From Bryobacteraceae bacterium (GTDB taxonomy: Bacteria; Acidobacteriota; Terriglobia; Bryobacterales; Bryobacteraceae), in NCBI GenBank assembly GCA_029975915.1, contig JARKOC010000466.1:62001-126000 (forward strand): a stretch of 64,000 nucleotides of DNA, in the 5' to 3' direction. Each line of letters begins with the position of its first letter. The first letter of the stretch is position 1. The notes under the pieces are model-generated. The model was not told where the DNA came from, searched no databases, and worked only from the letters and a program-made list of their open reading frames with translations. Position numbers and translations under genes: made by a program. Shown here in pieces: positions 1 through 12,098 of the stretch.

Positions 1-182
1 GTCGCTGCGTCGAAGAGATTCTGGCCGTCCTGGAGGTAGAAGACCGGGTAGAGTTGGCGGGCGCTGGAGTAGCCGGGAGGGAGGTAGACGATGATGTCCC
101 GGGGTGTGGAAAGGTAACGGGATGGAAAGCGGCGGTGGAGGCGGAGCCGGCCTTCGGTCCTGGCGGTGCGCGGGGAATTCAT
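1..182 (-). CDS. Esterase of the PF00756 alpha/beta-hydrolase family, partial (C-terminus beyond the left edge)
   Basis: Only the first 60 or so codons are inside the window. Starting from an ATG at 182 the frame reads MNSPRTARTEGRL and then reaches a conserved block, DIIVYLPPGYSS, followed by YPVFYLQDGQNLFD. That DGQNLFD segment is typical of the first strand and loop of enterochelin-esterase-like (Fes/esterase D) proteins. The nucleophile Ser and the His would lie outside the window. No good Shine-Dalgarno sequence precedes the ATG, so the start could differ. It is divergent from the next gene, another PF00756-type esterase, with about 120 bp between them. Confidence 0.7.
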   Translation of the reverse strand, partial: MNSPRTARTEGRLRLHRRFPSRYLSTPRDIIVYLPPGYSSARQLYPVFYLQDGQNLFDAA

Positions 183-304: not shown

Positions 305-1018
305 ATGCGACGAGACTATGTGAAGTGGTATAGCCCGTCTCTGCACCGCGAGATGGAGTTGCTTGCGTTTGGCGACCGCGGATTCCCCGTGGTCGTGTTT
401 CCCACCTCTGGCGGGCGATTCCACGAATATGAGGACAGGCGGATGGTGGAGACACTGCGCCCTAAGATCGAGCGCGGCGAGCTACAGGTGATTTGCCTGG
501 ACTCGGTGGACCAGGAATCCTGGTACAACCGCACGGCGGGCGCGCAGGATCGGCTGAACCGTCAAAACGCCTTCGACGCCTACCTGGCTATCGAAGTGGC
601 GCCATTTGTCCGGAACCGGACCAGTTGGCCGCAGATGGGCGCGACGGGTTGCAGCTTTGGCGGCTACCATGCCATGAACTTTGGCCTGCGCCATCCGGAC
701 ATCGTGACCTATGTGGTCAGCATGTCCGGCGCCTTTGATATCCCGCAGCGGTTTCTGGGCGATATCGACAACACGGACGCCTATCTCAATTCACCGCTGG
801 CGTACCTGCCCGGGCTCGACAGCGGATGGTATCTGGACCAGATGCGGCGGAATTACTACGCGCTGGTGGTCGGCAACCAAGATCCGCTGTTCGACCAGAA
901 CGTGAAACTGGCGCACGAGTTGGGAACCAAGCAGATCCCGCACGTGCTTGACGTTTGGGATGGGTTCGGCCACGATTGGCCGTGGTGGCAGCGGATGGCG
1001 GAAAAGTACTTCCTTTAA
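305..1018 (+). CDS. Esterase-like alpha/beta hydrolase (COG4947 type), first gene of the amidoligase operon
   Basis: A 237-residue cytoplasmic protein without a signal peptide. It carries the nucleophile elbow GCSFGG with Ser117, an Asp in GNQDPLFDQN and a His in GFGHDWPWW, which gives a plausible Ser-Asp-His triad. The HDWPWWQRM ending is characteristic of small esterases of this group. It lies 21 bp upstream of an ATP-grasp gene and reads into five further genes without a visible terminator, so it probably releases, transfers or proofreads the product of the ligases encoded downstream. The substrate is unknown. No clear Shine-Dalgarno sequence precedes the ATG, although this is the first methionine in frame with the conserved N-terminus. 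Confidence 0.85.
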   Translation: MRRDYVKWYSPSLHREMELLAFGDRGFPVVVFPTSGGRFHEYEDRRMVETLRPKIERGELQVICLDSVDQESWYNRTAGAQDRLNRQNAFDAYLAIEVAPFVRNRTSWPQMGATGCSFGGYHAMNFGLRHPDIVTYVVSMSGAFDIPQRFLGDIDNTDAYLNSPLAYLPGLDSGWYLDQMRRNYYALVVGNQDPLFDQNVKLAHELGTKQIPHVLDVWDGFGHDWPWWQRMAEKYFL

Positions 1019-1042
1019 GGGTGCCGGGAGGAAATCAAGGTG

Positions 1043-1981
1043 ATGAAACGGGTCGCAGTTTTGTATGGCATGGAGGAGTCTTTCCCTCCTGCGCTTGTGG
1101 ACCGGATCAACGAACTGGGCGGGGGTGAAGTCTCGGGCGAGCATCTCAAGACCGGCGGCGTCCGCATGGACCTGCCAAGCGGCTACGACGTGATTGTCGA
1201 CCGCATCTCGCACGACATCCCGTTTTACCGGTCCTACCTGAAGCAGGCGGTTCTGACCGGGACGCAGGTGATCAACAATCCGTTCTGGTGGAGCGCGGAC
1301 GACAAGTTCTTCAACTACGCTCTGGCGGCAAAGCTCGGCGTCGCCGTGCCGCCGACTGTGCTGCTACCGCATAAGACGCATCCGCCGGGCACCACGGATC
1401 GTTCGATGCGGAATCTTGAGTATCCGCTCAACTGGGAAGCGATCTTTGAATACGTCGGGTTCCCGGCGTTTCTCAAGCCGCACGACGGCGGCGGCTGGCG
1501 CGATGTCTACAAGGTGAACAGCCCTCAGGAAGTGTTTGACGCCTACGACCAGACGGGGACGCTGTGCATGACGCTCCAGCGTGGCGTGAACTTCGACGAT
1601 TACTACCGCTGCTATGTGGTGAACCAGGAGAAGGTCCACATCATGCGCTACGACCCGAAGCAGCCGCACCATTTGCGTTATGTGCCGGGCAATCCGCCGC
1701 CCGAGCCGGCGATGGCGGACCGGATCACGAAAGACGCTTTGCTGCTTTGCCGGGCGTTGGGCTACGACCTCAATACGGTCGAGTTCGCCGTCGAGGACGG
1801 CGTGCCCTATGCGATCGACTTCATGAATCCGGCGCCGGACGCGGGCCTGGAGTCGGTGGGCGAGGACAATTTCCGTTGGATCGTGGACGCAGTGGCGCAG
1901 ATGGCGATCGCCAGGGCGAAGTCGCCAGCTCAGGCGCAACCCTACGAATGGGCGAAGCTGCTGGCGCCTCCGCAAGGCTGA
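1043..1981 (+). CDS. ATP-grasp ligase, RimK/glutathione-synthetase-like
   Basis: About 312 residues. The ATP-grasp fold is supported by a lysine in the phosphate-loop-like segment FPAFLKPHDGGGW, a second ATP-binding stretch CMTLQRGVNF, and the metal-binding acidic pair in NTVEFAVEDG and AIDFMNPAPD. Such enzymes join a carboxylate to an amine through an acylphosphate. An alternative GTG start lies one codon upstream at 1040; the GGGAGG at 1026-1031 suits either. The gene follows the esterase by about 24 bp and precedes the GCS2-type ligase by 24 bp. The substrates cannot be read from the sequence. Confidence 0.82.
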   Translation: MKRVAVLYGMEESFPPALVDRINELGGGEVSGEHLKTGGVRMDLPSGYDVIVDRISHDIPFYRSYLKQAVLTGTQVINNPFWWSADDKFFNYALAAKLGVAVPPTVLLPHKTHPPGTTDRSMRNLEYPLNWEAIFEYVGFPAFLKPHDGGGWRDVYKVNSPQEVFDAYDQTGTLCMTLQRGVNFDDYYRCYVVNQEKVHIMRYDPKQPHHLRYVPGNPPPEPAMADRITKDALLLCRALGYDLNTVEFAVEDGVPYAIDFMNPAPDAGLESVGEDNFRWIVDAVAQMAIARAKSPAQAQPYEWAKLLAPPQG

Positions 1982-2005
1982 GGCAGGGACCGGAGGGGGA
2001 GACCG

Positions 2006-3163
2006 ATGCCGCAACAGGGCGCACAATCGAAACGGCCAAGCCTGAGTTTGGGGATCGAGGAGGAGTTCCAGACCATCGACCCGGTGACGCGCGACCTGAA
2101 GTCGCACATTCAGGCCGAAATCGTCCAGAAGGGCAAGATGCTGCTGGCCGAGAGGGTGAAGCCGGAGATGCACCAGTCGGTGGTGGAGATCGGTACGGGT
2201 GTCTGCCAGCACATCCAACAGGCCCGGGAAGAGATCAAGGAGATCCGGCAGCACATCATCAAACTGGCGAGGGCGCACGACCTTCGAATCGCGGCGGCGG
2301 GAACCCATCCGTTTGCGCAGTGGCGCGAACAGGAGATCTACCCGGACGACCGCTACCGGATGATCGTCGAGGACATGAAGATGGTGGCGCGGGCAAACCT
2401 GATCTTCGGGCTGCACGTGCATGTGGGTGTGGAGGACCGCGAGACGGCGATCCAACTGATGAACGGGGCGCGGTACTTCCTGCCGCACCTGCTGGCGATA
2501 TCGGCGAATTCGCCGTTCTGGCAGGGCATGGAGACGGGGCTGAAAAGCTACCGCTGCAAGGTCTTCGACAAGTTTCCGAGAACCAATATCCCGGACGTGT
2601 TCCAGAGCTGGTCCGAGTTTGAAGACTTTGTCGATCTGCTGATCCGGACCAATTGCATCGACAACGCCAAGAAGATTTGGTGGGACATCCGCCCGCACCC
2701 GCACTTTCCGACGCTCGAATTCCGCATTTGCGATATGCCGATGCGGCTGGACGAGACCATCGCCATCGCCGCTCTCTGCCAGGCGATCATCGCCAAGTTG
2801 TACAAATTGCACGAGCAGAATCTGACATTCCGCCACTACGGCCGGGCTCTGATCATGGAGAACAAGTGGCGGGCGGCCCGATACGGGCTGGACGGCAAGC
2901 TGATCGATTTCGGCAAGCAGCAGGAGGTGGCCGAGAGGGACCTGGTTCAGGAGATACTTGAGTTCGTTTCCGATGTCGCAGCGGAATTGGGAAGCGAGCG
3001 CGAGATCGCATACATCGAAAAGATACTGGAGCGCGGTACGGGCGCCGACCGCCAGTTGAAAGTGTTCGCGGAGACCAAAGACTTGAAACAGGTTGTGGAC
3101 TACACGATTTCGGAAACCGAGGCGGGCTTGTTCGACGGCGCCGGGGAGGTTGCGAGCCAGTGA
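2006..3163 (+). CDS. Carboxylate-amine ligase of the YbdK/glutamate-cysteine ligase 2 (GCS2) family
   Basis: A 385-residue protein with the family hallmarks GIEEEFQ near residue 16, GTHPF, GLHVHVG and DIRPHPHFPTLEFRI. These belong to the glutamine-synthetase-like fold of GCS2 enzymes (COG2170). E. coli YbdK has only weak glutamate-cysteine ligase activity, and the true substrate of most members is unknown. A GGGAG sequence sits just upstream of the ATG. Its stop overlaps the GTG of the next gene by four bases, which suggests translational coupling. With neighbouring ATP-grasp ligases it probably forms one amide bond of a multi-step product. Confidence 0.9.
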   Translation: MPQQGAQSKRPSLSLGIEEEFQTIDPVTRDLKSHIQAEIVQKGKMLLAERVKPEMHQSVVEIGTGVCQHIQQAREEIKEIRQHIIKLARAHDLRIAAAGTHPFAQWREQEIYPDDRYRMIVEDMKMVARANLIFGLHVHVGVEDRETAIQLMNGARYFLPHLLAISANSPFWQGMETGLKSYRCKVFDKFPRTNIPDVFQSWSEFEDFVDLLIRTNCIDNAKKIWWDIRPHPHFPTLEFRICDMPMRLDETIAIAALCQAIIAKLYKLHEQNLTFRHYGRALIMENKWRAARYGLDGKLIDFGKQQEVAERDLVQEILEFVSDVAAELGSEREIAYIEKILERGTGADRQLKVFAETKDLKQVVDYTISETEAGLFDGAGEVASQ

Positions 3164-4212
3164 CGGGTCATGCGGAGATGCTCACCGGGACCCGATTCAA
3201 CCCGGAGTTCGCCGACGGAGCCAGGAACGCTGTGAACAACTGCCTTCGCGTCGCACGCGGTGAAAAGGTGACGCTCATCACCGATGAAGCGTGTCTGGAA
3301 ATCGGCGCCTCGCTGGCGGCCGAGCTGGCGCGCCTGGAGGTCGCTTACAACGCCTGGATTCTGGAACGGCTATCAGACAGGCCGCTTTCCTCCATGCCGG
3401 GCGAAGTGCTCGACGACATGGAGTCGAGCCAAGTGAGTATCTTCGCCGTCAAAGCGCAGAGGAACGAACTCGGTTCGCGGATGCAGATGACCGACGTGGT
3501 GAACCGGCGGCGCATGAGGCATGCTCACATGGTGAACATCGAGCCGCGGATCATGCTGGAAGGCATGCGGGCGGACTTCGAGGCCGTGGACCGCATCAGC
3601 ACGGCGGTGTGGCAGATGGCGAGCCAGGCGCGCGAGATCCGGGCAACCAACCCCGCCGGCACCGACATTCTGGCGCGGTTTTCGCCGGATTTGAAGTGGC
3701 TGAAAACCAGCGGCATCATCAGCCCGCACAAGTGGGGCAATCTGCCCGGCGGGGAGACTTTCACGACGCCGGAAAGCGTGGATGGCGTCTTCGTTGTCGA
3801 CGGCGTGGTGGGTGATTACCTGTGCGAGAAGTACGGGGATTTGAAAGCGGCTCCTCTCACGCTGGTGATCCGCGACAGCCGCCTGGTTAGCGCGGAGAGC
3901 GAGAACAAGGAGCTTGAACGGGAGTTCTGGCAATACTGCCACACGGACTCGAACAGCGACCGCGCCGGCGAGTTCGCCATCGGCACCAACATCGGCGTGC
4001 GGGATGTGATTGGAAATATCCTCCAGGACGAGAAGATCCCCGGCATTCACGTGGCCTTCGGGAATCCCTATGGCGCGCACACCGGGGCCGATTGGTATTC
4101 GTCGACGCACATTGACGTTGTTGGACGGCGGTTCGACATCTGGATCGACGGGCTGAAGATCATGCAAGACGGAGTATTCCTGCTTGATAACCTCGCGCCG
4201 GCAGGCCTTTAA
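3160..4212 (+). CDS. M29-family (aminopeptidase T/AmpS-like) metallopeptidase
   Basis: A 350-residue protein of the leucyl aminopeptidase/thermophilic aminopeptidase group (COG2309). The metal ligands and active-site residues known for M29 all seem present: Glu199 in NLPGGETF, Glu271 in GEFAIGTN, His297 in GIHVAFG, Tyr304 nearby, and His317/Asp319 in THIDVV. The GTG start overlaps the preceding TGA. In this operon the enzyme may trim or recycle an amide-linked product, or may have been recruited as an amidohydrolase; the first is simpler. It also encodes the Shine-Dalgarno sequence and TTG start of the next gene in its last codons. Confidence 0.87.
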   Translation: MTGHAEMLTGTRFNPEFADGARNAVNNCLRVARGEKVTLITDEACLEIGASLAAELARLEVAYNAWILERLSDRPLSSMPGEVLDDMESSQVSIFAVKAQRNELGSRMQMTDVVNRRRMRHAHMVNIEPRIMLEGMRADFEAVDRISTAVWQMASQAREIRATNPAGTDILARFSPDLKWLKTSGIISPHKWGNLPGGETFTTPESVDGVFVVDGVVGDYLCEKYGDLKAAPLTLVIRDSRLVSAESENKELEREFWQYCHTDSNSDRAGEFAIGTNIGVRDVIGNILQDEKIPGIHVAFGNPYGAHTGADWYSSTHIDVVGRRFDIWIDGLKIMQDGVFLLDNLAPAGL

Positions 4213-5365
4213 CAACAGCTATTCGAGCGGCCGGTACCAGCGGTTTCTATCGATCCTGGAGCGCCGGTTCGGCGAAGCGGCGCAGTTCCGGCACAGCGAA
4301 ACGCCGTGCTTCTTCGCAGCATCTCTGATTGACAAGATAGCGCGCGCAGGCAGCGAGATGACCCGGCAAATCGTCGCCGACCGGGCGTATCAAGAGCTGG
4401 CTTTTCAAGCCATTCCCGAACGATACCGCACGCCGGATCAGGACCCTGTGCCGCTGTTCGTGCAAGCCGATTTCGGACTGGACGCGAAGCTCGAACCGAA
4501 GCTCGTCGAGATCCAGGGTTTCCCGTCGCTCTACGCCTACCAGCCTGTGATGGCGGCGGCATACCGGGAGGCATACGGGCTGGATGAGTCGCTCAACTCG
4601 CTCCCGTTTGGCTTGGGGTTGGATGAATACAAGCGTCTGCTGGGCGAAGCCATTCTCGGCGGTGAGGACCCGGTGCAGGTGGTCCTGACAGAGATCGACC
4701 CGGACCGGCAGAAGACGCGGCACGACTTCAGGGTGACCGAAGAGTGGTTCGGCATCCGGACCGTGGATATCCGGGCGCTCAAAAGAGACGGGCGGCGCCT
4801 GGTGTATGAAAGGGACGGCAGGCTTGTTCCGGTGCGGCGCATTTACAACCGGGCAATCGTGGACGAACTCGAACGCAAGGGCGCCCAGCTTCAGTTCGAC
4901 TGGCGGGACGACCTGGATCTGAAATGGGCCGGCCACCCGAACTGGTTTTTCCGGCTCAGCAAGTTTTCGCTGCCGTATTTGAAGCATGAGAGCGTGCCCC
5001 GGACACTGTTCCTGGACCAGGCCGGGACGATCGAGCGGCCGGAGGATTGGGTACTGAAACCTCTTTGGTCCTTTGCCGGGCTGGGCGTCATGGTCGGTCC
5101 AAACGCGGAACAACTTGCGGCCGTGCCGGACAACCGCCGCGCGGACTACATCCTCCAGGAACGCGTCGATTTCCGGCCCGTGATTGAAACGCCGGAGGGG
5201 ATGGCGAAGGTGGAGATCCGGATCATGTACCTGTGGCTCGGCGAATTGCGGCCGGTAAACGTGATCGTGCGCATGGGGCGCGGCACGCAGATGGGTGTGG
5301 ATCACAACAAGGGTTTCGAGTGGGTGGGGGCGTCGGCGGCGATGATCGGCACAACGCAAGAATAG
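4184..5365 (+). CDS. ATP-grasp-like ligase, TTG start inside the preceding gene
   Basis: About 393 residues. Features consistent with an ATP-grasp core are WVLKPLWSFAGLGV (nucleotide-binding lysine and Gly-rich loop), YILQERVDF (adenine-contact Glu) and a C-terminal stretch with EIRIMYLW and RMGRGTQMG. The N-terminal half has EPKLVEIQGFPSLY, which I do not recognise beyond this family. The start is unusual: a TTG at 4184 lies 29 bp inside the preceding gene but has GGAG at 4171-4174 at good spacing, and no later ATG leaves the conserved N-terminus intact. This arrangement suggests coupled translation. Function within the operon is inferred to be another amide- or ester-forming step. Confidence 0.75.
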   Translation: MITSRRQAFNNSYSSGRYQRFLSILERRFGEAAQFRHSETPCFFAASLIDKIARAGSEMTRQIVADRAYQELAFQAIPERYRTPDQDPVPLFVQADFGLDAKLEPKLVEIQGFPSLYAYQPVMAAAYREAYGLDESLNSLPFGLGLDEYKRLLGEAILGGEDPVQVVLTEIDPDRQKTRHDFRVTEEWFGIRTVDIRALKRDGRRLVYERDGRLVPVRRIYNRAIVDELERKGAQLQFDWRDDLDLKWAGHPNWFFRLSKFSLPYLKHESVPRTLFLDQAGTIERPEDWVLKPLWSFAGLGVMVGPNAEQLAAVPDNRRADYILQERVDFRPVIETPEGMAKVEIRIMYLWLGELRPVNVIVRMGRGTQMGVDHNKGFEWVGASAAMIGTTQE

Positions 5366-5374
5366 GGAGCCAAT

Positions 5375-6592
5375 ATGAACGACGGCAAGCAACTTACCAT
5401 CCTCTGCCTGGCCAGCTACGAGAAAGGGCACGAATTCTTGCGCCAATGCCGGAGGCAAGGGGCGCGGGTTCTCCTGCTCACTTCGCAGAGCCTGCAAGAC
5501 AAGGCCCATTGGCCCATGGAGAGCATCGACGAGATCTTCTACATGGCCGACGTGGAAGGCAAATGGGACCGCGAGCAGTTGACCAACGCCGTCAGTTACC
5601 TTGCCCGGACGAGGGAGATCGACCGCATCGTGCCTTTGGACGACTTCGATGTCGAGGTCGCCGCCTATCTCCGCGAGCACTTGCGTGTGCCCGGCATGGG
5701 CGAGACCACGGCTCACTACTTCCGCGACAAGCTGGCGATGCGGATGAAGGCGAAAGAAGCCGGGCTGGCGGTGCCCGACTTCGTCCACGTTCTCAATCAC
5801 GGACATGTGAACGAATTCATGGACCGGGTGCCTGCGCCATGGGTGCTGAAACCCAGGTCGATGGCCGGCGCGATCGGCATCAGGAAGATCCACTCCAGGG
5901 AGGAACTCTGGCGAATCGTTGACGAGCTGGGCGACATGCAGTCGCACTACTTGCTGGAACGCTTCGTTGAAGGCGGCATCTTCCACGTCGATTGCATTGT
6001 CTACGAACGCCAGGTGCTGTTTGCCATCGCCAGCGGCTACGGGCGCCCGCCGATGGAAGTGTCGCACGAGGGAGGGATCTTCACCACGCGGATCCTCGAC
6101 CGCTCCTCGGAGCTGGCGCGCCAGTTGCTGCTGGCCAACGCTGACGTCATGCGAGCCCTGGGCATGTTGCGCGGTGTCTCGCATACCGAGTTCATCGTTT
6201 CCCATCCCGGCGGCACTGTTTACTTTCTCGAAACATCGGCCCGTGTGGGTGGGGCGCACATCGCCGACCTCGTTGAAGCAGCCTCCGGGCTAAACATGTG
6301 GGCGGAGTGGGCAAAGGTGGAACTCGCCGGGGGCAAAGCGCCCTATAAGGTGCAGCCACTACGCGAGGAGTACGCCGGGCTGCTCGTCTCGCTGGCGAGG
6401 CAGGAACATCCGGACCTGTCCGCCTACAATGATCCCGAGGTGGTCTGGCGGATGCACAAAAGCCACCATGCCGGCCTCATCGTGAGCAGCCCGAGCCCCT
6501 CGCGCATAGAAGAATTGATCTCCAGCTACGCTGGCCGGTTCGCTGAGGATTTCATGGCGTACGTTCCGCCGCGGAGTTCGCCCACGGAGTAA
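5375..6592 (+). CDS. ATP-grasp ligase, carbamoyl-phosphate-synthase/biotin-carboxylase-like
   Basis: A 405-residue protein. The first 110 residues look like a pre-ATP-grasp domain (ILCLASYEKGHEFL, then DRIVPLDDFD). The core follows with WVLKPRSMAGAIGI, YLLERFVEGG and the metal/phosphate site HTEFIVS with FLETSARVGG. A GGGAG sits five bases before the ATG and the gap to the preceding gene is only nine bases, so it is the last gene of the operon. Members of this group (COG0439-like) ligate amino acids or activate carboxylates. The C-terminal 80 residues are not recognisable. The product remains unknown. Confidence 0.8.
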   Translation: MNDGKQLTILCLASYEKGHEFLRQCRRQGARVLLLTSQSLQDKAHWPMESIDEIFYMADVEGKWDREQLTNAVSYLARTREIDRIVPLDDFDVEVAAYLREHLRVPGMGETTAHYFRDKLAMRMKAKEAGLAVPDFVHVLNHGHVNEFMDRVPAPWVLKPRSMAGAIGIRKIHSREELWRIVDELGDMQSHYLLERFVEGGIFHVDCIVYERQVLFAIASGYGRPPMEVSHEGGIFTTRILDRSSELARQLLLANADVMRALGMLRGVSHTEFIVSHPGGTVYFLETSARVGGAHIADLVEAASGLNMWAEWAKVELAGGKAPYKVQPLREEYAGLLVSLARQEHPDLSAYNDPEVVWRMHKSHHAGLIVSSPSPSRIEELISSYAGRFAEDFMAYVPPRSSPTE

Positions 6593-6718: not shown

Positions 6719-7984
6719 TCAACGTTTCAAATGTGTGTCGGCGAAGTCGAGGAAGTAGCCCCAATCACGATCTTCTAGTCCGTGGCCCCCGGTCCTGATG
6801 TGATAGCCGGTACTGCCCACGTGCCGCGGTTGTCCCAGCGCGGGCATTACTGGATCAGTCATTGACTGTTTTCCGAGGAGGCTGAACACCGGCCGGGCCG
6901 CCAGCAGGGACGCATATTCACCCTTGGGATCGGCCCAAAGGTCCTCGTCCGCGCTGGCGACATAAACCGCGCGCGGAGCGACAAGCGCGATCAGTTCGTG
7001 CTGGTCCACCGGAAGCTCATTCTCCCTGCCTGCGTATTTCTGGAAGTTTCCGCAGAACCAGTGCGGGAACGAAGCGCCGATGACGGCGACGGTCTCGCCA
7101 TATTTGCGCCGGGACAAGGCCGCGCCCATGCAGCCCGAATCGTTGCTATACGCCACGGCGAATCGAGTATCCTCGCTCGCCGCCCACAGCGAAGCCTTGC
7201 CTCCGCGCGAATGCCCGCTGACGGCCACACGCTGCGTGTCGATCGCCTTGATCGTCGCCAGGTAATCGAGCACCCGGCTCGCGGCCCACCCCCAGGACGA
7301 AAGAGCGCCCCAGGCATCGGCGGAGGGCGGGGTTCCGTCCGCGAAGAATGAACGGATTCCCGCGGCGTACCCGTCTTTTCTGTCCGGATCCACGTGCGAC
7401 GTATGAAACGAAGCCGTGGCGTATCCGCGTTGGATCAGCGTTCTCACAGGCCAGAATGGATCATGTTTGTCCAGCACGGCCTTCACAGGCAGGGCATAGC
7501 GGTTGTTGATATGAACAACGGCCGGAACCCTGCCCTGGGGCTTGCTCGGCACGAATACGACGAATGGAAACTCGAAGCTGCGCTGCCCGATTGTGATTTT
7601 GGCGACCATGTCCCGTCCTGTCGCGGCGCCGTCGAACGCGCTGATCACTTCCGATTCCTGCCGGAACGACACCAAATACTTCACTCCGGGCCGCCGCCCG
7701 TAGATTTGATCCCGGAATAATTCCAGCAGCTCGCCGCGCCGCTCCGCGTTCCACATTGCAGGCGATGTGACAACGGTCCCTCGTCGCGTCTTCAGGGCAT
7801 CGGGCAACTCGTAGGCTGGCACTTTGGCCTCGTCGTAATTAATGCCGGGCCTGCGACGGCTGAGATCCTCGGCCAGTTTAGGGTTGGCCGACCAGGGCGG
7901 CGAGCTCTGGGCGAGTACGGCTACGCTCAAGCCAATGACAATCAGCCCGCAAAGCAGCTTCATATTTTTCTTGTGCATCTTCAT
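6719..7984 (-). CDS. CE15-type glucuronoyl (4-O-methyl-glucuronate) esterase, secreted
   Basis: A 421-residue protein with an N-terminal signal peptide (MKMHKKNMKLL and then a hydrophobic run ending near AQS). CE15 hallmarks are present: the Ser nucleophile in GHSRGGKASLW, NDSGCMGAALSRR, SFPHWFCGNF, and DQHELIALVAPRAVY, with a candidate catalytic His in RTGGHGLED. These enzymes cleave the ester between lignin alcohols and glucuronic acid on xylan. The ATG at 7984 was chosen over upstream codons because it begins the signal peptide and has GGAG at good spacing. It is a single gene, downstream of a terminator of the preceding minus-strand operon. Confidence 0.85.
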   Translation of the reverse strand: MKMHKKNMKLLCGLIVIGLSVAVLAQSSPPWSANPKLAEDLSRRRPGINYDEAKVPAYELPDALKTRRGTVVTSPAMWNAERRGELLELFRDQIYGRRPGVKYLVSFRQESEVISAFDGAATGRDMVAKITIGQRSFEFPFVVFVPSKPQGRVPAVVHINNRYALPVKAVLDKHDPFWPVRTLIQRGYATASFHTSHVDPDRKDGYAAGIRSFFADGTPPSADAWGALSSWGWAASRVLDYLATIKAIDTQRVAVSGHSRGGKASLWAASEDTRFAVAYSNDSGCMGAALSRRKYGETVAVIGASFPHWFCGNFQKYAGRENELPVDQHELIALVAPRAVYVASADEDLWADPKGEYASLLAARPVFSLLGKQSMTDPVMPALGQPRHVGSTGYHIRTGGHGLEDRDWGYFLDFADTHLKR

Positions 7985-8291
7985 CGTGTTGACTCCACAG
8001 TCCTGACCCGGCTTCGGGCCGCACCGCCATCCTACTCCTCCCAAGTTAAGCTCTGGAAATGGGTTTTGCGGCCCGCATCGTCCGATGGCTCTTCCGCCGA
8101 TTCGTCGGGACTCGTCCAGCCGAGCGCATCCCGCAACGCTGGGAATGCGGCAGGAGCCCGGCGGATTTACCGCAGCAGGCAAGCGAGCATCGTTTAACCT
8201 GACCGGCCCGGATCAAGCTGCCGATCGAAACGAGAAAGACCCGGGGCGGAAGGCCTCCGCGCCGGGTCTCAGACTGGCGATAGTCCTTCTC
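7985..8291. other. Intergenic stretch, 307 bp
   Basis: No gene is supported here. The left part must carry the promoter and leader of the minus-strand glucuronoyl esterase, although I see no clear -35/-10 pair. The right part holds the terminator of the HEAT-protein operon at 8237-8269. Confidence 0.5.
8229..8269 (-). terminator. Rho-independent terminator of the minus-strand sugar operon
   Basis: AGACCCGG at 8237-8244 pairs with CCGGGTCT at 8262-8269, with further pairing of the inner GGAAGG/CCTCC. Read on the minus strand the stem is followed by TTTCTCGTTTCG. It lies 22 bp downstream of the HEAT-protein stop codon. Confidence 0.75.
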
Positions 8292-9113
8292 CTACTGTTG
8301 GCGGCGTCCGAGGAAGCCGCTGCGATCGTTCTCAGCCGCCTCGCCAGTCGGTGGCGGATACTCCTTTGCGCCTGCCGGTGCGGGGCCCGCCTCATTGAGC
8401 ACGCGCAACGCCGCGAGCCGGACGGGCGCGGGCATCGTGGTGGCGCTCAATTGTGTGTACAGTTCCAGCGAGCGGGCGCGATTGGTTGCCATCAGCCCTT
8501 CCGCGCATAGCAGACAGGCCCGGGCGACCACGGGAAACACCGGCGGCTTGGTGGTCCCAAGCGCCGCCTGCAACACTTTGGCTGCCTGCAATCCGCCGAT
8601 CATTCCCACCGAAGCGGCCGCGGCTCCGGCCACTTCTGCGTCAGGATTGTCGATCAACTTGGCAACGGCGTCAAGAGCACGGGCGTCCTTGCGGACTCCA
8701 ATGGTCGTGATCAATCCCACCAGCAGCCGGCCCTTCAGTTTCGGCAGAGCGGCTCGCAAGGCGATGTCCACGGACGGATCGGGATTCGGTTCCAAGCCGA
8801 AACGGGCGTAGCAGGACAATTGCGGGTGGTCGAGCAGCGCCGCCATCGGCGCTACTGCTTCCTTGCCGCCGACGAAGGCCAGTTTCTTGCAGGCGATGGC
8901 CTTCTGAAACACGGTCGACTTCGGGTCCTTGACCATGGCGACTAATTTGGCCGGCGGTAGAGTCCAGATGGGCAGCCCATCGAACTCGGGGGGAACCTTT
9001 GGCGGAGGTACGCGAGCCGGCTTGGCGGCTGCGGGAGCTTGGCCCTGCGCGCCTGCTGGGGCTGCCTGTGGCGCCGCCTGAGGCGGTTGTTGCTGTCCAG
9101 GTGCTTGCGGCAT
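8292..9113 (-). CDS. HEAT-repeat protein with a Pro/Gln/Ala-rich N-terminus
   Basis: A 273-residue protein. Residues 1-45 are low complexity (PQAPGQQQPPQAAPQ and similar). The remainder is made of Ala/Leu-rich helical pairs, for example KEAVAPMAALLDHP, DARALDAVAKLIDNP and AEVAGAAAASVGMIGG, which fit HEAT/armadillo-type repeats. There is no signal peptide or membrane segment. An AGGAGAA precedes the ATG at good distance, and the gene starts 32 bp after the oxidoreductase gene, so the two are probably co-transcribed and end at the terminator at 8237-8269. HEAT proteins usually act as binding scaffolds; the partner is unknown. Confidence 0.7.
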   Translation of the reverse strand: MPQAPGQQQPPQAAPQAAPAGAQGQAPAAAKPARVPPPKVPPEFDGLPIWTLPPAKLVAMVKDPKSTVFQKAIACKKLAFVGGKEAVAPMAALLDHPQLSCYARFGLEPNPDPSVDIALRAALPKLKGRLLVGLITTIGVRKDARALDAVAKLIDNPDAEVAGAAAASVGMIGGLQAAKVLQAALGTTKPPVFPVVARACLLCAEGLMATNRARSLELYTQLSATTMPAPVRLAALRVLNEAGPAPAGAKEYPPPTGEAAENDRSGFLGRRQQ

Positions 9114-9145
9114 ATCGATATTCTCCTCTTCCTGTCCTGTGTCCC

Positions 9146-10531
9146 CTACATGCTGGTGGCCAGCGCTTCCATGCGCCAGGGCTCGCGGTAAGCGCGGCTG
9201 CGCATGCGGTTGGCCTCCTCGTCGTTAATGAACATTCGCTTGGCCGGATCCCAAGTCAGCTTGCGGTTCAGTTGCGCGCAGATCCAGGCCGCGTGTGAAG
9301 CGACATGGGTGTGGCAAGTGACCTCGGCGTTGGCGCGGGGCTGCGAACGCGAACGGACGCAGTTCAGGAAGTCCTGAATGTGCGCGTATGTCGGATCGTA
9401 GCGCTTGCCTTGCCGTTTGGGCACGAGTGATTTCAGGTTGTCGGAAACTTCGATTCGGCCGCTGTCGCCTGTCTCAACCCAGCCTTCGGTGCCCTCGAAG
9501 CGGTTGCTGCAAGAGCCGAGCAGACTCCAACTATGATTGCGCAAGACCAATTTCACGCCGTTAGCGTACCGGCAATTGATATTGTAGCGGCTGATGAGGC
9601 CGTCACCGCGGAAGATGCCGCCCTCGGGCTCGTATTCCACCGGCTCGGTATGTTCCATGTCGGCGGCCCACTGCGCCATCGCGACGGTGTGCGAGGCCCA
9701 TTCGAGCAGGCCGGCGTGGAAGTCCCAGAACTGGCCGCGGCCGCGGTCGGCATAGTTCGAATTGTAGGGCCTCCACAAGCAGGGCCCAAGCCATTTGTCC
9801 CAATCGAAGACCAGCGGGTCAGGTTCTGGAGCGTCGGCCGCCCACCAGCCGTGGCCGCCTTCGTCCACGCTGCCCAGGCCGATGGCTGTGTCCGCGTGCA
9901 CGGCCAGCAAACGGCCCAGTTTGCCGCTGCGCGCCAGACCCACGGCGAACTCGAAGGCAAATTGATTCCGGCGCTGGGCTCCCGATTGGTACACCACGCC
10001 GTAGCGGCGGACATTGTCGGCCATGGCATAGCTCTCCATGATCGACATCGCGCCGGGTTTCTCGATGTACATGTCCTTGCCCGACTGGGCCGCCCACATG
10101 GCCATCGGCCCGTGCCAGCGGTCGCTGGTGGCGATGAGCAGCGCGTCGATATCTTTGCGGGCGAGGATCTCGGCCGGATCCTTGTGCATCACGCACTCGT
10201 TGTTGCCATAGTGCTTGTCTACAGCGCTCTTTACCATCTCCCGCGCGCTGTCCCTGACGTCGGCGATGGCGACGAACTTGACGCGGTCGTCTCCCAGCAT
10301 CATGCGAAGGTCCGCCATGCCGCGGCCCCGGATGCCGATACCGCCGACCCGGATCTGATCGACCATCGCGTAGTTGCCCACCAGGACGGGTCCTGATTGG
10401 CCGGCGGCCGGGCTAGCGATTTGACCCGCCGCGTTGTTGGCAAGCACAGTGGGTACGGCCGCCGCGGCGCCGGCCTGGGCCACGGCCTTTCCAAACCCTC
10501 TGCGTGTTACAGGCTGTTTTATATCCGCCAT
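9146..10531 (-). CDS. Gfo/Idh/MocA-family oxidoreductase, Tat-exported
   Basis: A 461-residue protein. The Tat signal TRRGFGKAVAQAG is followed by an Ala-rich hydrophobic stretch. The nucleotide-binding part has VGGIGIRGRGMAD and VAIADVRDS, and the family signature EKPGAM with its conserved Lys follows at about residue 165. The C-terminal domain has GGHGWWAADAPEPDP and WDFHAGLLEWASH. Exported members of this family have been linked to sugar oxidation using tightly bound NAD(P). GGAGAG lies close to the ATG at 10531. A 12-bp perfect inverted repeat directly upstream is a likely operator. The DUF1080 gene further upstream is a typical partner. Confidence 0.87.
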   Translation of the reverse strand: MADIKQPVTRRGFGKAVAQAGAAAAVPTVLANNAAGQIASPAAGQSGPVLVGNYAMVDQIRVGGIGIRGRGMADLRMMLGDDRVKFVAIADVRDSAREMVKSAVDKHYGNNECVMHKDPAEILARKDIDALLIATSDRWHGPMAMWAAQSGKDMYIEKPGAMSIMESYAMADNVRRYGVVYQSGAQRRNQFAFEFAVGLARSGKLGRLLAVHADTAIGLGSVDEGGHGWWAADAPEPDPLVFDWDKWLGPCLWRPYNSNYADRGRGQFWDFHAGLLEWASHTVAMAQWAADMEHTEPVEYEPEGGIFRGDGLISRYNINCRYANGVKLVLRNHSWSLLGSCSNRFEGTEGWVETGDSGRIEVSDNLKSLVPKRQGKRYDPTYAHIQDFLNCVRSRSQPRANAEVTCHTHVASHAAWICAQLNRKLTWDPAKRMFINDEEANRMRSRAYREPWRMEALATSM

Positions 10532-10540
10532 GATTCTCTC

Positions 10541-10579
10541 CGTATCAGACAATGTGTCTCCTGACTCTTGTCTGATACG
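10541..10579 (-). promoter_or_regulatory. Perfect 12-bp inverted repeat, candidate operator or leader hairpin
   Basis: CGTATCAGACAA at 10541-10552 and TTGTCTGATACG at 10568-10579 are exact inverted copies separated by 15 bp. The repeat ends 10 bp before the oxidoreductase ATG, next to its ribosome-binding site. The symmetry and 27-bp centre spacing fit a dimeric repressor site or a hairpin that could mask the ribosome-binding site. No regulator gene lies adjacent. Confidence 0.6.
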
Positions 10580-10729
10580 GAACTCTATCATCTCGGCGGG
10601 TAGCACTCAAGTGCATTGTGTCCGCCGCCGTGGACGCAATGGCCGCCGGGCGATGCCGGAATGGGGGTTCGCGGCCCGCTTCCCGCGAACACGGGTACCG
10701 TTCCCGAAGCCAAACTACAGCGGGATGGC

Positions 10730-11398
10730 CTATTTCGGGGCGGGCGTCAATGGACGCCACTCGATCTTCCGTATGGCTCCAACTGTGGCGTAGGTGGCAA
10801 TCCCAAATGGAACCGACCGGTCGATGTCGCCCTCGCGCAGGGCGATCCACTTGCCTTCAATATTCACATCAATCACTTTGTCTTCGTCGATCCAGGCCGC
10901 TATCGCCACGGGCGTGACTCGCAGGCGCAACTTGTACCAGCGGCCGAGTTCAAACTTCATGCCGAGCGTGGTCTCGTTCCTTGCGGCGTCCGCGCCGCTG
11001 ATATTAGACAACCCCACCACCTCGCCGCCCCAGCCGCCATTGATCCACGTGCAATAAGAGTCTCGAACCGGGAAGGTGATGCCGGCGAAGAAATCGCTCC
11101 CCTTGATGCGTGCCGCCTCAATGCGGACCTCGTAACCTGAAGCAGGAAACGGCGCCGAAGCCCCCGCCCACGTGATGCCAGTCAGCACCCCGGCGCCAAT
11201 GGTGATGACCCCATGGTCGACGGTGACCTTGCCGGCCCCAAGGAAGTCGGACTCCTTCCAACCCGCCAGCGACTTGCCGTCGAACAGCGGGCGCCATTCG
11301 CCCTCAGCAGGCGCGGGACCCGCCTCTTGCCCCCGCACCGATACCGGAAAAAACATAGCTGCTCCGATGGCGGCGGACAGAATTAGCGTTTTTCGCAT
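10730..11398 (-). CDS. Secreted DUF1080 (3-keto-disaccharide hydrolase/LamG-like) protein
   Basis: A 222-residue protein with a signal peptide (MRKTLILSAAIGAAMFF, cleavage near VRGQ). The start of the mature domain has the DUF1080 motif WRPLFDGKSLAGWK, followed by a jelly-roll-like pattern with DFFAGITFPV, WINGGWGGEV, and FGIATYATVGAIRKIEWRPL at the end. Characterised relatives in Bacteroides hydrolyse 3-keto-glycosides made by Gfo/Idh/MocA-type dehydrogenases, and one such dehydrogenase is encoded just downstream on the same strand. The gene lies 40 bp after the KDPG aldolase gene. Confidence 0.82.
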   Translation of the reverse strand: MRKTLILSAAIGAAMFFPVSVRGQEAGPAPAEGEWRPLFDGKSLAGWKESDFLGAGKVTVDHGVITIGAGVLTGITWAGASAPFPASGYEVRIEAARIKGSDFFAGITFPVRDSYCTWINGGWGGEVVGLSNISGADAARNETTLGMKFELGRWYKLRLRVTPVAIAAWIDEDKVIDVNIEGKWIALREGDIDRSVPFGIATYATVGAIRKIEWRPLTPAPK

Positions 11399-11438
11399 GG
11401 ATTGGCGGCTCTCCGGAAGCGGCTTCTGCTGGATTGGG

Positions 11439-12098
11439 CTATTTCATCTCCTCGCGCGCTTTTTGAACGACCTCAAGGAATTGCCTGGCGCGCTCGGTGA
11501 AGACTTCATACGTTCCCGCCTTGATTGTTTTGGCATCGACCAGTTCGCCGCCGACGGCCACGGCGCAGGCGCCGGCCTTGAGGAAGTCACCCGCCGTGGT
11601 CAGGGACACGCCTCCGGTGGGGATCATCTCGATCTGCGGGAAAGGTCCTTTGAGGGCCTTGATGTACTTGGCGCCGCCGACGTTGTCGCAAGGGAAAACC
11701 TTGACGATATCGGCGCCGGCCTGCCAGGCGGTGAGCACTTCCGTGGGGGTGAGCGCGCCGGGACAGATCGGTTTCGAGTAGCGCTGGGCCATTTCGATGG
11801 TCTTGAGGTTGAGAGCCGGGGTGACGAAGAACTCCGCGCCGGCGAGCATGCAGATGCGGCAGGTTTCAGGATCGAGCACAGTGCCCGCGCCGAGCACCAT
11901 CTTGTCGCCGAACTTGTTGGCAAGCTGTTCGAGGACCTTCACCGCGCCAGGCACCGTCATGGTGACCTCGGCCGCGCGGATGCCCCCTTCATAGATGGCT
12001 TCGATGGCCTTGAATGCGGATTCGGCCGAGGGCGTGCGCACCACGGGCACGATACCGATTTCCTTCATTGCGGAGAGGATGCTCTGTTTTGATGCCAT
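11439..12098 (-). CDS. eda: 2-dehydro-3-deoxy-6-phosphogluconate (KDPG)/4-hydroxy-2-oxoglutarate aldolase
   Basis: A 219-residue class I aldolase, of normal length. Glu44 in AAEVTMTVPG and the Schiff-base Lys133 in GADIVKVFPCD match the family, as does LGAGTVLDPE and IPTGGVSL. It splits KDPG into pyruvate and glyceraldehyde 3-phosphate at the end of the Entner-Doudoroff and uronate pathways. It is the first gene of the minus-strand sugar cluster. Together with the glucuronoyl esterase and a distant hexuronate-type transporter it supports uronate catabolism. Confidence 0.92.
   Translation of the reverse strand: MASKQSILSAMKEIGIVPVVRTPSAESAFKAIEAIYEGGIRAAEVTMTVPGAVKVLEQLANKFGDKMVLGAGTVLDPETCRICMLAGAEFFVTPALNLKTIEMAQRYSKPICPGALTPTEVLTAWQAGADIVKVFPCDNVGGAKYIKALKGPFPQIEMIPTGGVSLTTAGDFLKAGACAVAVGGELVDAKTIKAGTYEVFTERARQFLEVVQKAREEMK

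What the first reader, a model, noticed from the sequence alone, without database searches (positions are those of the whole stretch)
305..6592. Six-gene amidoligase operon with an unknown product
Seen: esterase, ATP-grasp, YbdK/GCS2 ligase, M29 peptidase and two further ATP-grasp proteins, all plus-strand, with gaps of 24 bp or less and two overlaps (4 and 29 bp). Known: ATP-grasp and GCS2 enzymes form amide bonds; such neighbourhoods have been surveyed by comparative genomics as likely makers of novel peptide-like metabolites, but to my knowledge this exact set has no assigned product. Inference: up to four ligation steps, with hydrolases for maturation or recycling. No cysteine-rich substrate peptide, transporter or regulator is visible next to it.
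Basis: partly seen in the sequence, partly recalled or inferred. Interest (0 to 1): 0.78.

Follow-up and report, generated by a model that had tools for sequence, protein, structure and literature searches.

The report
Acidobacterial amidoligase cluster, product unknown
Six adjacent genes in a soil-type acidobacterium, five of them kept in the same order in many relatives, look like an assembly line that joins amino acids or similar building blocks into a small molecule nobody has yet identified, with enzymes that may cut it again.

Summary
In detail: six intact plus-strand genes with the stated gaps and overlaps. The conserved unit is five genes (esterase, RimK/LysX-type ATP-grasp, YbdK-type GCS2, M29, permuted ATP-grasp): in 48 of the 80 best-matching loci all five stand in this order on one strand, and none of the 80 shows another order. 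Gene 6, L-amino-acid-ligase-like, is near the cluster in 7 of 80. Gene 5 has no Pfam family; its model matches YgiC/YjfC, glutathionylspermidine synthetase and eukaryotic glutathione synthetase. Across 297 genomes of the phylum the genes co-occur even when unlinked. M29 and an unrelated, GATase-like protein X exclude each other (21 and 12 of 37 genomes, never both), with at least five switches on the gene-5 tree. Best reading: a small gamma-glutamyl-type amide or peptide made by three or four ATP-dependent ligations and cut by dedicated hydrolases. No substrate or product is known. Thiol replacement is unlikely (bshC in 36 of 37), and so is spermidine as general partner (AdoMet decarboxylase in 7 of 37). 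No description found in the papers searched; one recalled survey was not readable.

The parts
1..182 (-). 5' part of a second alpha/beta hydrolase (esterase-like), divergent from gene 1, cut by the window edge; optional companion
   Evidence: tblastn with the L001 neighbour: 74% identity at 3-185 minus; divergent and with its match within 200 bp of gene 1 in 8 of 53 other loci where gene 1 was placed
305..1018 (+). gene 1: esterase / alpha-beta hydrolase with Ser117, Asp193, His223 as presumed catalytic triad
   Evidence: Pfam PF00756 40 bits against cut-off 22; the three residues invariant in 17 sequences (that they form the triad is inferred); PDB esterases E 7e-14
1040..1981 (+). gene 2: ATP-grasp ligase, RimK/LysX/ArgX/Ddl-like (start GTG 1040 or ATG 1043)
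2006..3163 (+). gene 3: YbdK-type carboxylate-amine ligase (GCS2)
   Evidence: PF04107 238.5 bits; NF010039 568 bits against cut-off 371; PDB YbdK E 1e-63
3160..4212 (+). gene 4: M29-family metalloprotein (aminopeptidase-like)
   Evidence: PF02073 37.8 bits against cut-off 27; AmpS E 5e-5; E271, H297, H317, D319 invariant in 16 sequences
4184..5365 (+). gene 5: circularly permuted ATP-grasp ligase of the glutathione synthetase / glutathionylspermidine synthetase / YgiC superfamily; no Pfam family; TTG start
5375..6592 (+). gene 6: ATP-grasp, L-amino-acid-ligase-like; accessory, near relatives only
   Evidence: PF13535 29.7 bits against cut-off 27; PDB L-amino acid ligase 4wd3 E 1.2e-18; near the cluster in 7 of 80 loci, 5 downstream on the same strand, 2 upstream on the other

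Best explanation
The cluster makes and turns over a small amide- or peptide-type metabolite without a ribosomal template. Proposed order (inferred): the GCS2 enzyme activates the gamma-carboxylate of glutamate (or a like acid) with ATP and joins it to an amine or amino acid; the RimK/LysX-like ATP-grasp adds a further amino acid; the permuted ATP-grasp caps the carboxylate with an amine or amino acid, as glutathione synthetase, YgiC or glutathionylspermidine synthetase do. In the window's lineage gene 6 adds one more residue. The M29 protein, replaced in other lineages by a class-I-GATase-like protein, cuts one of these amide bonds for recycling or proofreading; the esterase acts on an ester or thioester form. 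Shown here: gene content, folds, conserved candidate catalytic positions, conserved order, co-occurrence, and the mutual exclusion of M29 and the GATase-like protein. Inferred: reaction order, glutamate as a building block, every substrate, the hydrolytic roles, and a free metabolite as product.
For: Folds. Conserved positions. Order in the best 80 loci: genes 1-5 in order on one strand in 48, right-hand part with the contig ending in 21, right-hand part on a longer contig in 7, gene 5 alone in 4, another order in 0. Co-occurrence in 297 genomes: gene 2 in 36 of 37 gene-5 genomes against 42 of 260 others, gene 3 in 34 against 56, M29 in 21 against 2. Linkage is not needed: G098 has gene 5 at 4.82 Mb and genes 1-4 at 3.90 Mb. 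A second permuted-ATP-grasp-like family (CP_ATPgrasp_2-like) is found elsewhere: 72 of 78 gene-2 genomes have gene 5 or this family, against 11 of 219 without gene 2. M29 and the GATase-like protein: 21 and 12 of 37, both 0, neither 4; fewest switches on the gene-5 tree 5, of which 3 are forced by well-supported branches.
Against: No activity, substrate or metabolite was tested. Fold does not tell the nucleophile. M29-like folds include a non-peptidase (2,5-dihydroxypyridine dioxygenase; weak match). In 17 of 37 gene-5 genomes gene 5 is over 8 kb from the other core genes or on another contig. Protein X lies between genes 3 and 5 in only 4 of its 12 genomes, near the cluster in 2 and elsewhere in 6, and its GATase assignment is weak. 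The M29/X labels cluster by ancestry (1 of 500 shuffles as low), so the exclusion is a handful of events, not 33. Six genomes have both gene 5 and the CP_ATPgrasp_2-like family, and 6 gene-2 genomes have neither. Many gaps are from about 100 to over 1000 bp in more distant loci, and gene 1 is on the other strand in L128, L132, L137 and L138, so a single operon is not general. Co-occurrence p-values ignore shared ancestry.
Confidence: 0.6

Rival explanations
1. Polyamine conjugate: the pathway makes a gamma-glutamyl-peptide-polyamine like glutathionylspermidine or trypanothione; gene 5 is the polyamine ligase and the hydrolases are the amidase half.
For: Best model matches of gene 5 include the peptide-spermidine ligases YgiC/YjfC, glutathionylspermidine synthetase and trypanothione synthetase.
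Against: The same list holds glutathione and homoglutathione synthetases and Cp1B, which use amino acids. AdoMet decarboxylase (PF02675) was found in only 7 of 37 gene-5 genomes, against 6 of 20 genomes without genes 2 and 5, so own spermidine synthesis by that route is rare. Other polyamine routes, uptake and putrescine were not tested.
Confidence: 0.12
2. Low-molecular-weight thiol: a glutathione-like redox buffer that stands in for glutathione.
For: GCS2 plus a glutathione-synthetase-fold enzyme.
Against: bshC (PF10079, bacillithiol synthesis) is in 36 of 37 gene-5 genomes and in 9 of 20 comparison genomes, so these cells very likely have bacillithiol already. An additional thiol is not excluded.
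Confidence: 0.07
3. Compatible solute or storage compound: a capped dipeptide osmolyte with its own catabolic peptidase, like N-acetylglutaminylglutamine amide (that operon is recalled; the one search for it, showed nothing on it in the ten papers listed).
For: Ligases next to a metallopeptidase-like protein; no transporter next to the genes.
Against: No acetyltransferase or asparagine-synthetase-like amidotransferase among the six proteins; no osmotic link tested.
Confidence: 0.15
4. Protein or peptide modification: the ligases add residues to a protein side chain or tail (RimK-type polyglutamylation, LysW-type carrier) and the hydrolases remove them.
For: Gene 2 model scores highest with RimK, LysX and ArgX.
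Confidence: 0.15
5. Chance or housekeeping neighbourhood: unrelated enzymes that happen to be adjacent.
For: Gene 5 is unlinked in 17 of 37 genomes.
Against: Order conserved in 48 of 80 loci with no other order among the 80; co-occurrence persists when unlinked: gene 2 is present in all 17, gene 3 in 15. No random gene-pair control of the same size was run.
Confidence: 0.03

Closest known systems
E. coli YgiC/YjfC peptide-spermidine ligases and glutathionylspermidine synthetase (fold relatives of gene 5)
   Same: Same permuted ATP-grasp fold over nearly the full length. The pattern D96...E109-x-Q111 resembles D141...E163-x-N165 of Cp1B, compared by eye (PMC12568646, passages)
   Different: 10-15% identity; no Pfam GSP_synth hit; Q in place of N; direct profile comparison with YgiC weak (7.7% probability); nucleophile unknown. 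A table passage of PMC12506659 says YgiC itself lacks glutathionylspermidine synthase activity
Fungal E-64 pathway (Cp1B ATP-grasp)
   Same: Stand-alone ATP-grasp of the same fold used in a small-molecule pathway
   Different: Per the passages, E-64 uses an epoxysuccinate starter and an ANL-type second ligase; no GCS2 or M29 is mentioned in them
YbdK family (GCS2)
   Same: Gene 3 is a clear member
   Different: No such partner ligases next to E. coli ybdK as far as I recall; not checked
BesA / PGM1-type peptide ligases
   Same: One related acidobacterial locus (L152) has a BesA/PGM1-like ligase in a row with gene 2, a CP_ATPgrasp_2-like protein and the GATase-like protein
   Different: 159 bits against the BesA cut-off of 750, so a distant relative; not in the window cluster
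Amidoligase neighbourhoods surveyed by comparative genomics (Iyer and colleagues 2009, recalled)
   Same: Same logic as recalled: ATP-grasp and GCS2 ligases with peptidases
   Different: The paper is not held, so whether it lists this set could not be checked

Membership tests
GCS2 / YbdK carboxylate-amine ligase (gene 3) | Profile score over curated cut-off | tested here: met
   PF04107 238.5 against 21; NF010039 568.4 against 371
ATP-grasp, RimK/LysX/Ddl type (gene 2) | ATP-grasp fold | tested here: met
ATP-grasp, RimK/LysX/Ddl type (gene 2) | Pfam or NCBIfam score over cut-off | tested here: not met
   No Pfam hit; TIGR00768 23 bits against 143
Permuted ATP-grasp of the glutathione / glutathionylspermidine synthetase superfamily (gene 5) | Full-length permuted fold | tested here: met
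Permuted ATP-grasp of the glutathione / glutathionylspermidine synthetase superfamily (gene 5) | Acidic site D...E-x-N/Q | tested here: inconclusive
   D96, E109, Q111 invariant in 31 sequences; equivalence with Cp1B D141, E163, N165 judged by eye, not by superposition
Glutathionylspermidine synthetase (gene 5) | Pfam GSP_synth (PF03738) match | tested here: not met
   No Pfam family at E 0.001
Glutathionylspermidine synthetase (gene 5) | Ligation of a polyamine | not testable with these tools
   Needs enzyme assay
M29 metallopeptidase (gene 4) | Pfam M29 over cut-off | tested here: met
   37.8 against 27
M29 metallopeptidase (gene 4) | Metal-ligand positions kept | tested here: inconclusive
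   E271 and H297 align with E and H of AmpS (E 5e-5), H317-x-D319 with H-x-D of 7cn3 (E 0.05, weak); all four invariant in 16 sequences. Which residues bind metal is recalled
M29 metallopeptidase (gene 4) | Peptidase activity | not testable with these tools
   Needs enzyme assay
Class I glutamine amidotransferase (protein X, not in the window) | Pfam or NCBIfam match | tested here: not met
   No family at E up to 1 (Pfam; NCBIfam)
Class I glutamine amidotransferase (protein X, not in the window) | Cys-His-Glu triad in GATase register | tested here: inconclusive
   C155, H260, E262 identical in all 125 aligned sequences. Profile comparison: 21% probability, E 0.001 with C26; 5%, E 0.008 with GATase; 19% with both, the Cys stretch aligned; controls E 0.15-0.43, reversed X 0.83. 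PuuD aligns at H-P-E over 16 columns (12.7%, E 0.002; PuuA control 0.5%, E 0.12). 2 of 120 listed relatives are named 'anthranilate/para-aminobenzoate synthase component II'. The triad is recalled
Graspetide / other RiPP | Precursor peptide gene in the cluster | tested here: inconclusive
   No room between window genes; neighbour families were searched only from 80 aa up

The most novel reading that the evidence does not exclude
Acidobacteriota share an undescribed class of small gamma-glutamyl-type metabolite, a cofactor, buffer or solute, built by a trio of ligases (GCS2, RimK-like ATP-grasp, permuted ATP-grasp) whose amide bond is cut by either of two unrelated hydrolases that have replaced each other several times; lineages add their own extra ligase (gene 6 here, a BesA-like one in L152) to diversify it. 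(Lowered from 0.4 to 0.35 on re-check, because protein X lies inside the cluster in only 4 of its 12 genomes.)
Probability: 0.35. Interest if true: 0.8.

Novelty: new variant of a known kind. Interest (0 to 1): 0.6.

Why it matters
Acidobacteriota are among the commonest soil bacteria and their small-molecule chemistry is poorly known (general knowledge). A conserved set of five enzymes with no assigned product is a direct way into a possibly widespread metabolite of the phylum. The mutual exclusion of M29 and the GATase-like protein is a concrete, testable clue: if they share one role, both should act on the same substrate. Gene 5 and protein X also belong to large families without a name (7,978 homologues among 7,999 scored candidates, and 2,540 among 6,674; none of the 120 listed in either search carries a precomputed Pfam domain).

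Tried and rejected
Plasmid carriage: gene 5 has no match in 72,556 plasmid records; gene 4 matches 18 records, at 24-34% identity. Thiol replacement: argued against by bshC. Spermidine as the general nucleophile: argued against by AdoMet decarboxylase. The 20 comparison genomes were the first ones listed without genes 2 and 5, not a matched set. Sequence search of gene 5 against the PDB gave only chance hits, alone or as a profile; only the fold comparison placed it. Profile comparison of gene 5 with YgiC was weak (7.7% probability, E 0.0045, the stretch around VLKPL aligned) but above an unrelated control (0.2%, E 0.36); gene 5 against the CP_ATPgrasp_2-like family gave 65%, E 6e-5. Promoter scan found none and terminator hits were below the shuffle mean. 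Downstream neighbours frequent in Terriglobales-like loci (protein kinase with TPR in 38 loci, PIG-L-type in 33, amino-acid permease in 23) were taken as clade synteny, because they are not among the window's next genes; not tested further. Outside the phylum: a few names (120 listed) show relatives of gene 2 in Caldilineaceae, Armatimonadota and 'Candidatus Cybelea'; whether whole clusters exist there was not tested. X was sought in 49 genomes only, 13 with a hit, so its frequency in genomes without gene 5 is known for 12 (1 hit). Paper searches: listings only, no description of the cluster seen; passages were read in PMC12568646 and PMC12506659, no paper in full.
Full report
Observation. Six intact plus-strand ORFs lie at 305-6592 with gaps of 21, 24 and 9 bp and overlaps of 4 and 29 bp. 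The TTG start of gene 5 is supported: 30 of 31 aligned rows begin at that residue and the 29-bp overlap recurs in all 11 near relatives where genes 4 and 5 were both placed. Against the nearest relative L001, a Bryobacteraceae MAG, dN/dS is about 0.04 to 0.11 for all six. On the left, 1-182 minus is the start of a second alpha/beta hydrolase, divergent from gene 1; the same arrangement, with the match within 200 bp of gene 1, is seen in 8 of 53 other loci where gene 1 was placed. On the right the next genes run the other way: glucuronyl-esterase-like, HEAT, Gfo/Idh/MocA, 3-keto-disaccharide hydrolase and KDPG aldolase.

Conservation of order. In 48 of 80 loci genes 1-5 stand in this order on one strand. 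In 21 the right-hand part is seen where the contig ends within 1.2 kb; in 7 the right-hand part is seen on a longer contig; in 4 gene 5 is alone. No other order occurs among the 80. These are the best matches and so favour the cluster. Gene 6 is near the cluster in 7 of the 80: downstream on the same strand in 5, upstream on the other strand in 2. In a more distant clade gene 1 is on the other strand (L128, L132, L137, L138). Many gaps grow to hundreds of bases, so a single transcript is not general.

Co-occurrence in a less biased sample. In 297 genomes drawn evenly from the phylum, gene 5 is clear in 37; three weak or partial hits (G045, G136, G217) were dropped. Gene 2 is in 36 of these 37 and in 42 of the other 260; gene 3 in 34 and 56; M29 in 21 and 2. 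Ten weak gene-2 hits (E 1e-42 to 1e-51) and one M29 fragment (G138) were dropped before counting. Gene 1 is found in 35 of 37, of which 27 score above 325 bits and 8 score 210-282 bits and may be paralogues (40 of 42 genomes in that call). In 20 of 37 gene 5 lies within 8 kb of another core gene; in 17 it does not, yet gene 2 is present in all 17 and gene 3 in 15. Fisher p-values for gene 5 with genes 2, 3 and 4 are 1e-17 to 1e-23 but ignore shared ancestry. The genomes come without completeness figures.

Exchange of parts. In L131, L132, L133 and L135 a protein X with no Pfam or NCBIfam family sits between genes 3 and 5 in place of M29. Its Cys155, His260 and Glu262 are identical in all 125 aligned sequences. 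A profile comparison aligns the Cys stretch with class I glutamine amidotransferases and another aligns H-P-E with PuuD; the scores are modest (at best 21% probability, E 0.001; only 5% with the GATase set) but away from controls (E 0.12 to 0.83). The triad itself is recalled knowledge. Among the 37 gene-5 genomes, 21 have M29, 12 have X (one as a fragment), none has both and 4 have neither. X lies between genes 3 and 5 in 4 of these 12, near the cluster in 2 (G111, G290) and elsewhere in 6. On a tree of gene 5 the label changes at least 5 times, 3 of these forced by well-supported branches, though the labels also cluster by ancestry. A CP_ATPgrasp_2-like family, seen between genes 2 and 3 in other lineages, may fill the permuted-ligase slot there: of 78 gene-2 genomes, 72 have gene 5 or this family (6 have both, 6 neither), against 11 of 219 without gene 2. 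One locus (L152) adds a BesA/PGM1-like ligase.

How it probably works. Three ATP-dependent ligases of kinds that form amide bonds, plus either of two unrelated presumed hydrolases, point to a small amide or peptide metabolite that is made and cut in the cell. Glutamate as the starter is inferred from the GCS2 and glutathione-synthetase-like folds. Cutting of an amide by M29 or X is inferred from their families and their mutual exclusion. The reaction order is a guess.

Tests of rivals. Replacement of a thiol buffer is unlikely: bshC is in 36 of 37 gene-5 genomes and in 9 of 20 genomes lacking genes 2 and 5. Spermidine as the usual nucleophile is unlikely: AdoMet decarboxylase is in 7 of 37 and 6 of 20; other polyamines are open. 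A modified protein or carrier is not excluded, but no neighbour family of 80 aa or more stood out as one.

Novelty. The enzyme kinds and the idea of amidoligase clusters are known. This arrangement, with gene 5 and protein X outside Pfam and the repeated M29/X exchange, was not seen in the listings of the paper searches. A recalled 2009 survey of amidoligases is not held, so prior mention cannot be ruled out. I file it as a new variant of a known kind.

Noticed in passing
window 1-182 minus: Start of a second alpha/beta hydrolase, divergently transcribed from gene 1 and found so in 8 of 53 other loci with gene 1 placed; possibly a second esterase of the system.
   Followed up: partly
window 6719-12098 minus: A run of mostly sugar-related genes: glucuronyl-esterase-like, HEAT, Gfo/Idh/MocA oxidoreductase, 3-keto-disaccharide hydrolase, KDPG aldolase.
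   Followed up: no
L152 7977-13051: Related cluster with gene 2, a CP_ATPgrasp_2-like protein, GATase-like X and a BesA/PGM1-like ligase in a row.
   Followed up: partly
L017, L030, L035, L044, L053, L054, L066, upstream of gene 3: Small hydrophobic protein of about 115-145 aa, in 7 loci only; the one member scanned has no Pfam family.
   Followed up: no
L119, L120: Gene-6-like ATP-grasp (50-51% identity) 5-6 kb from a gene 5 without other core genes in reach.
   Followed up: no
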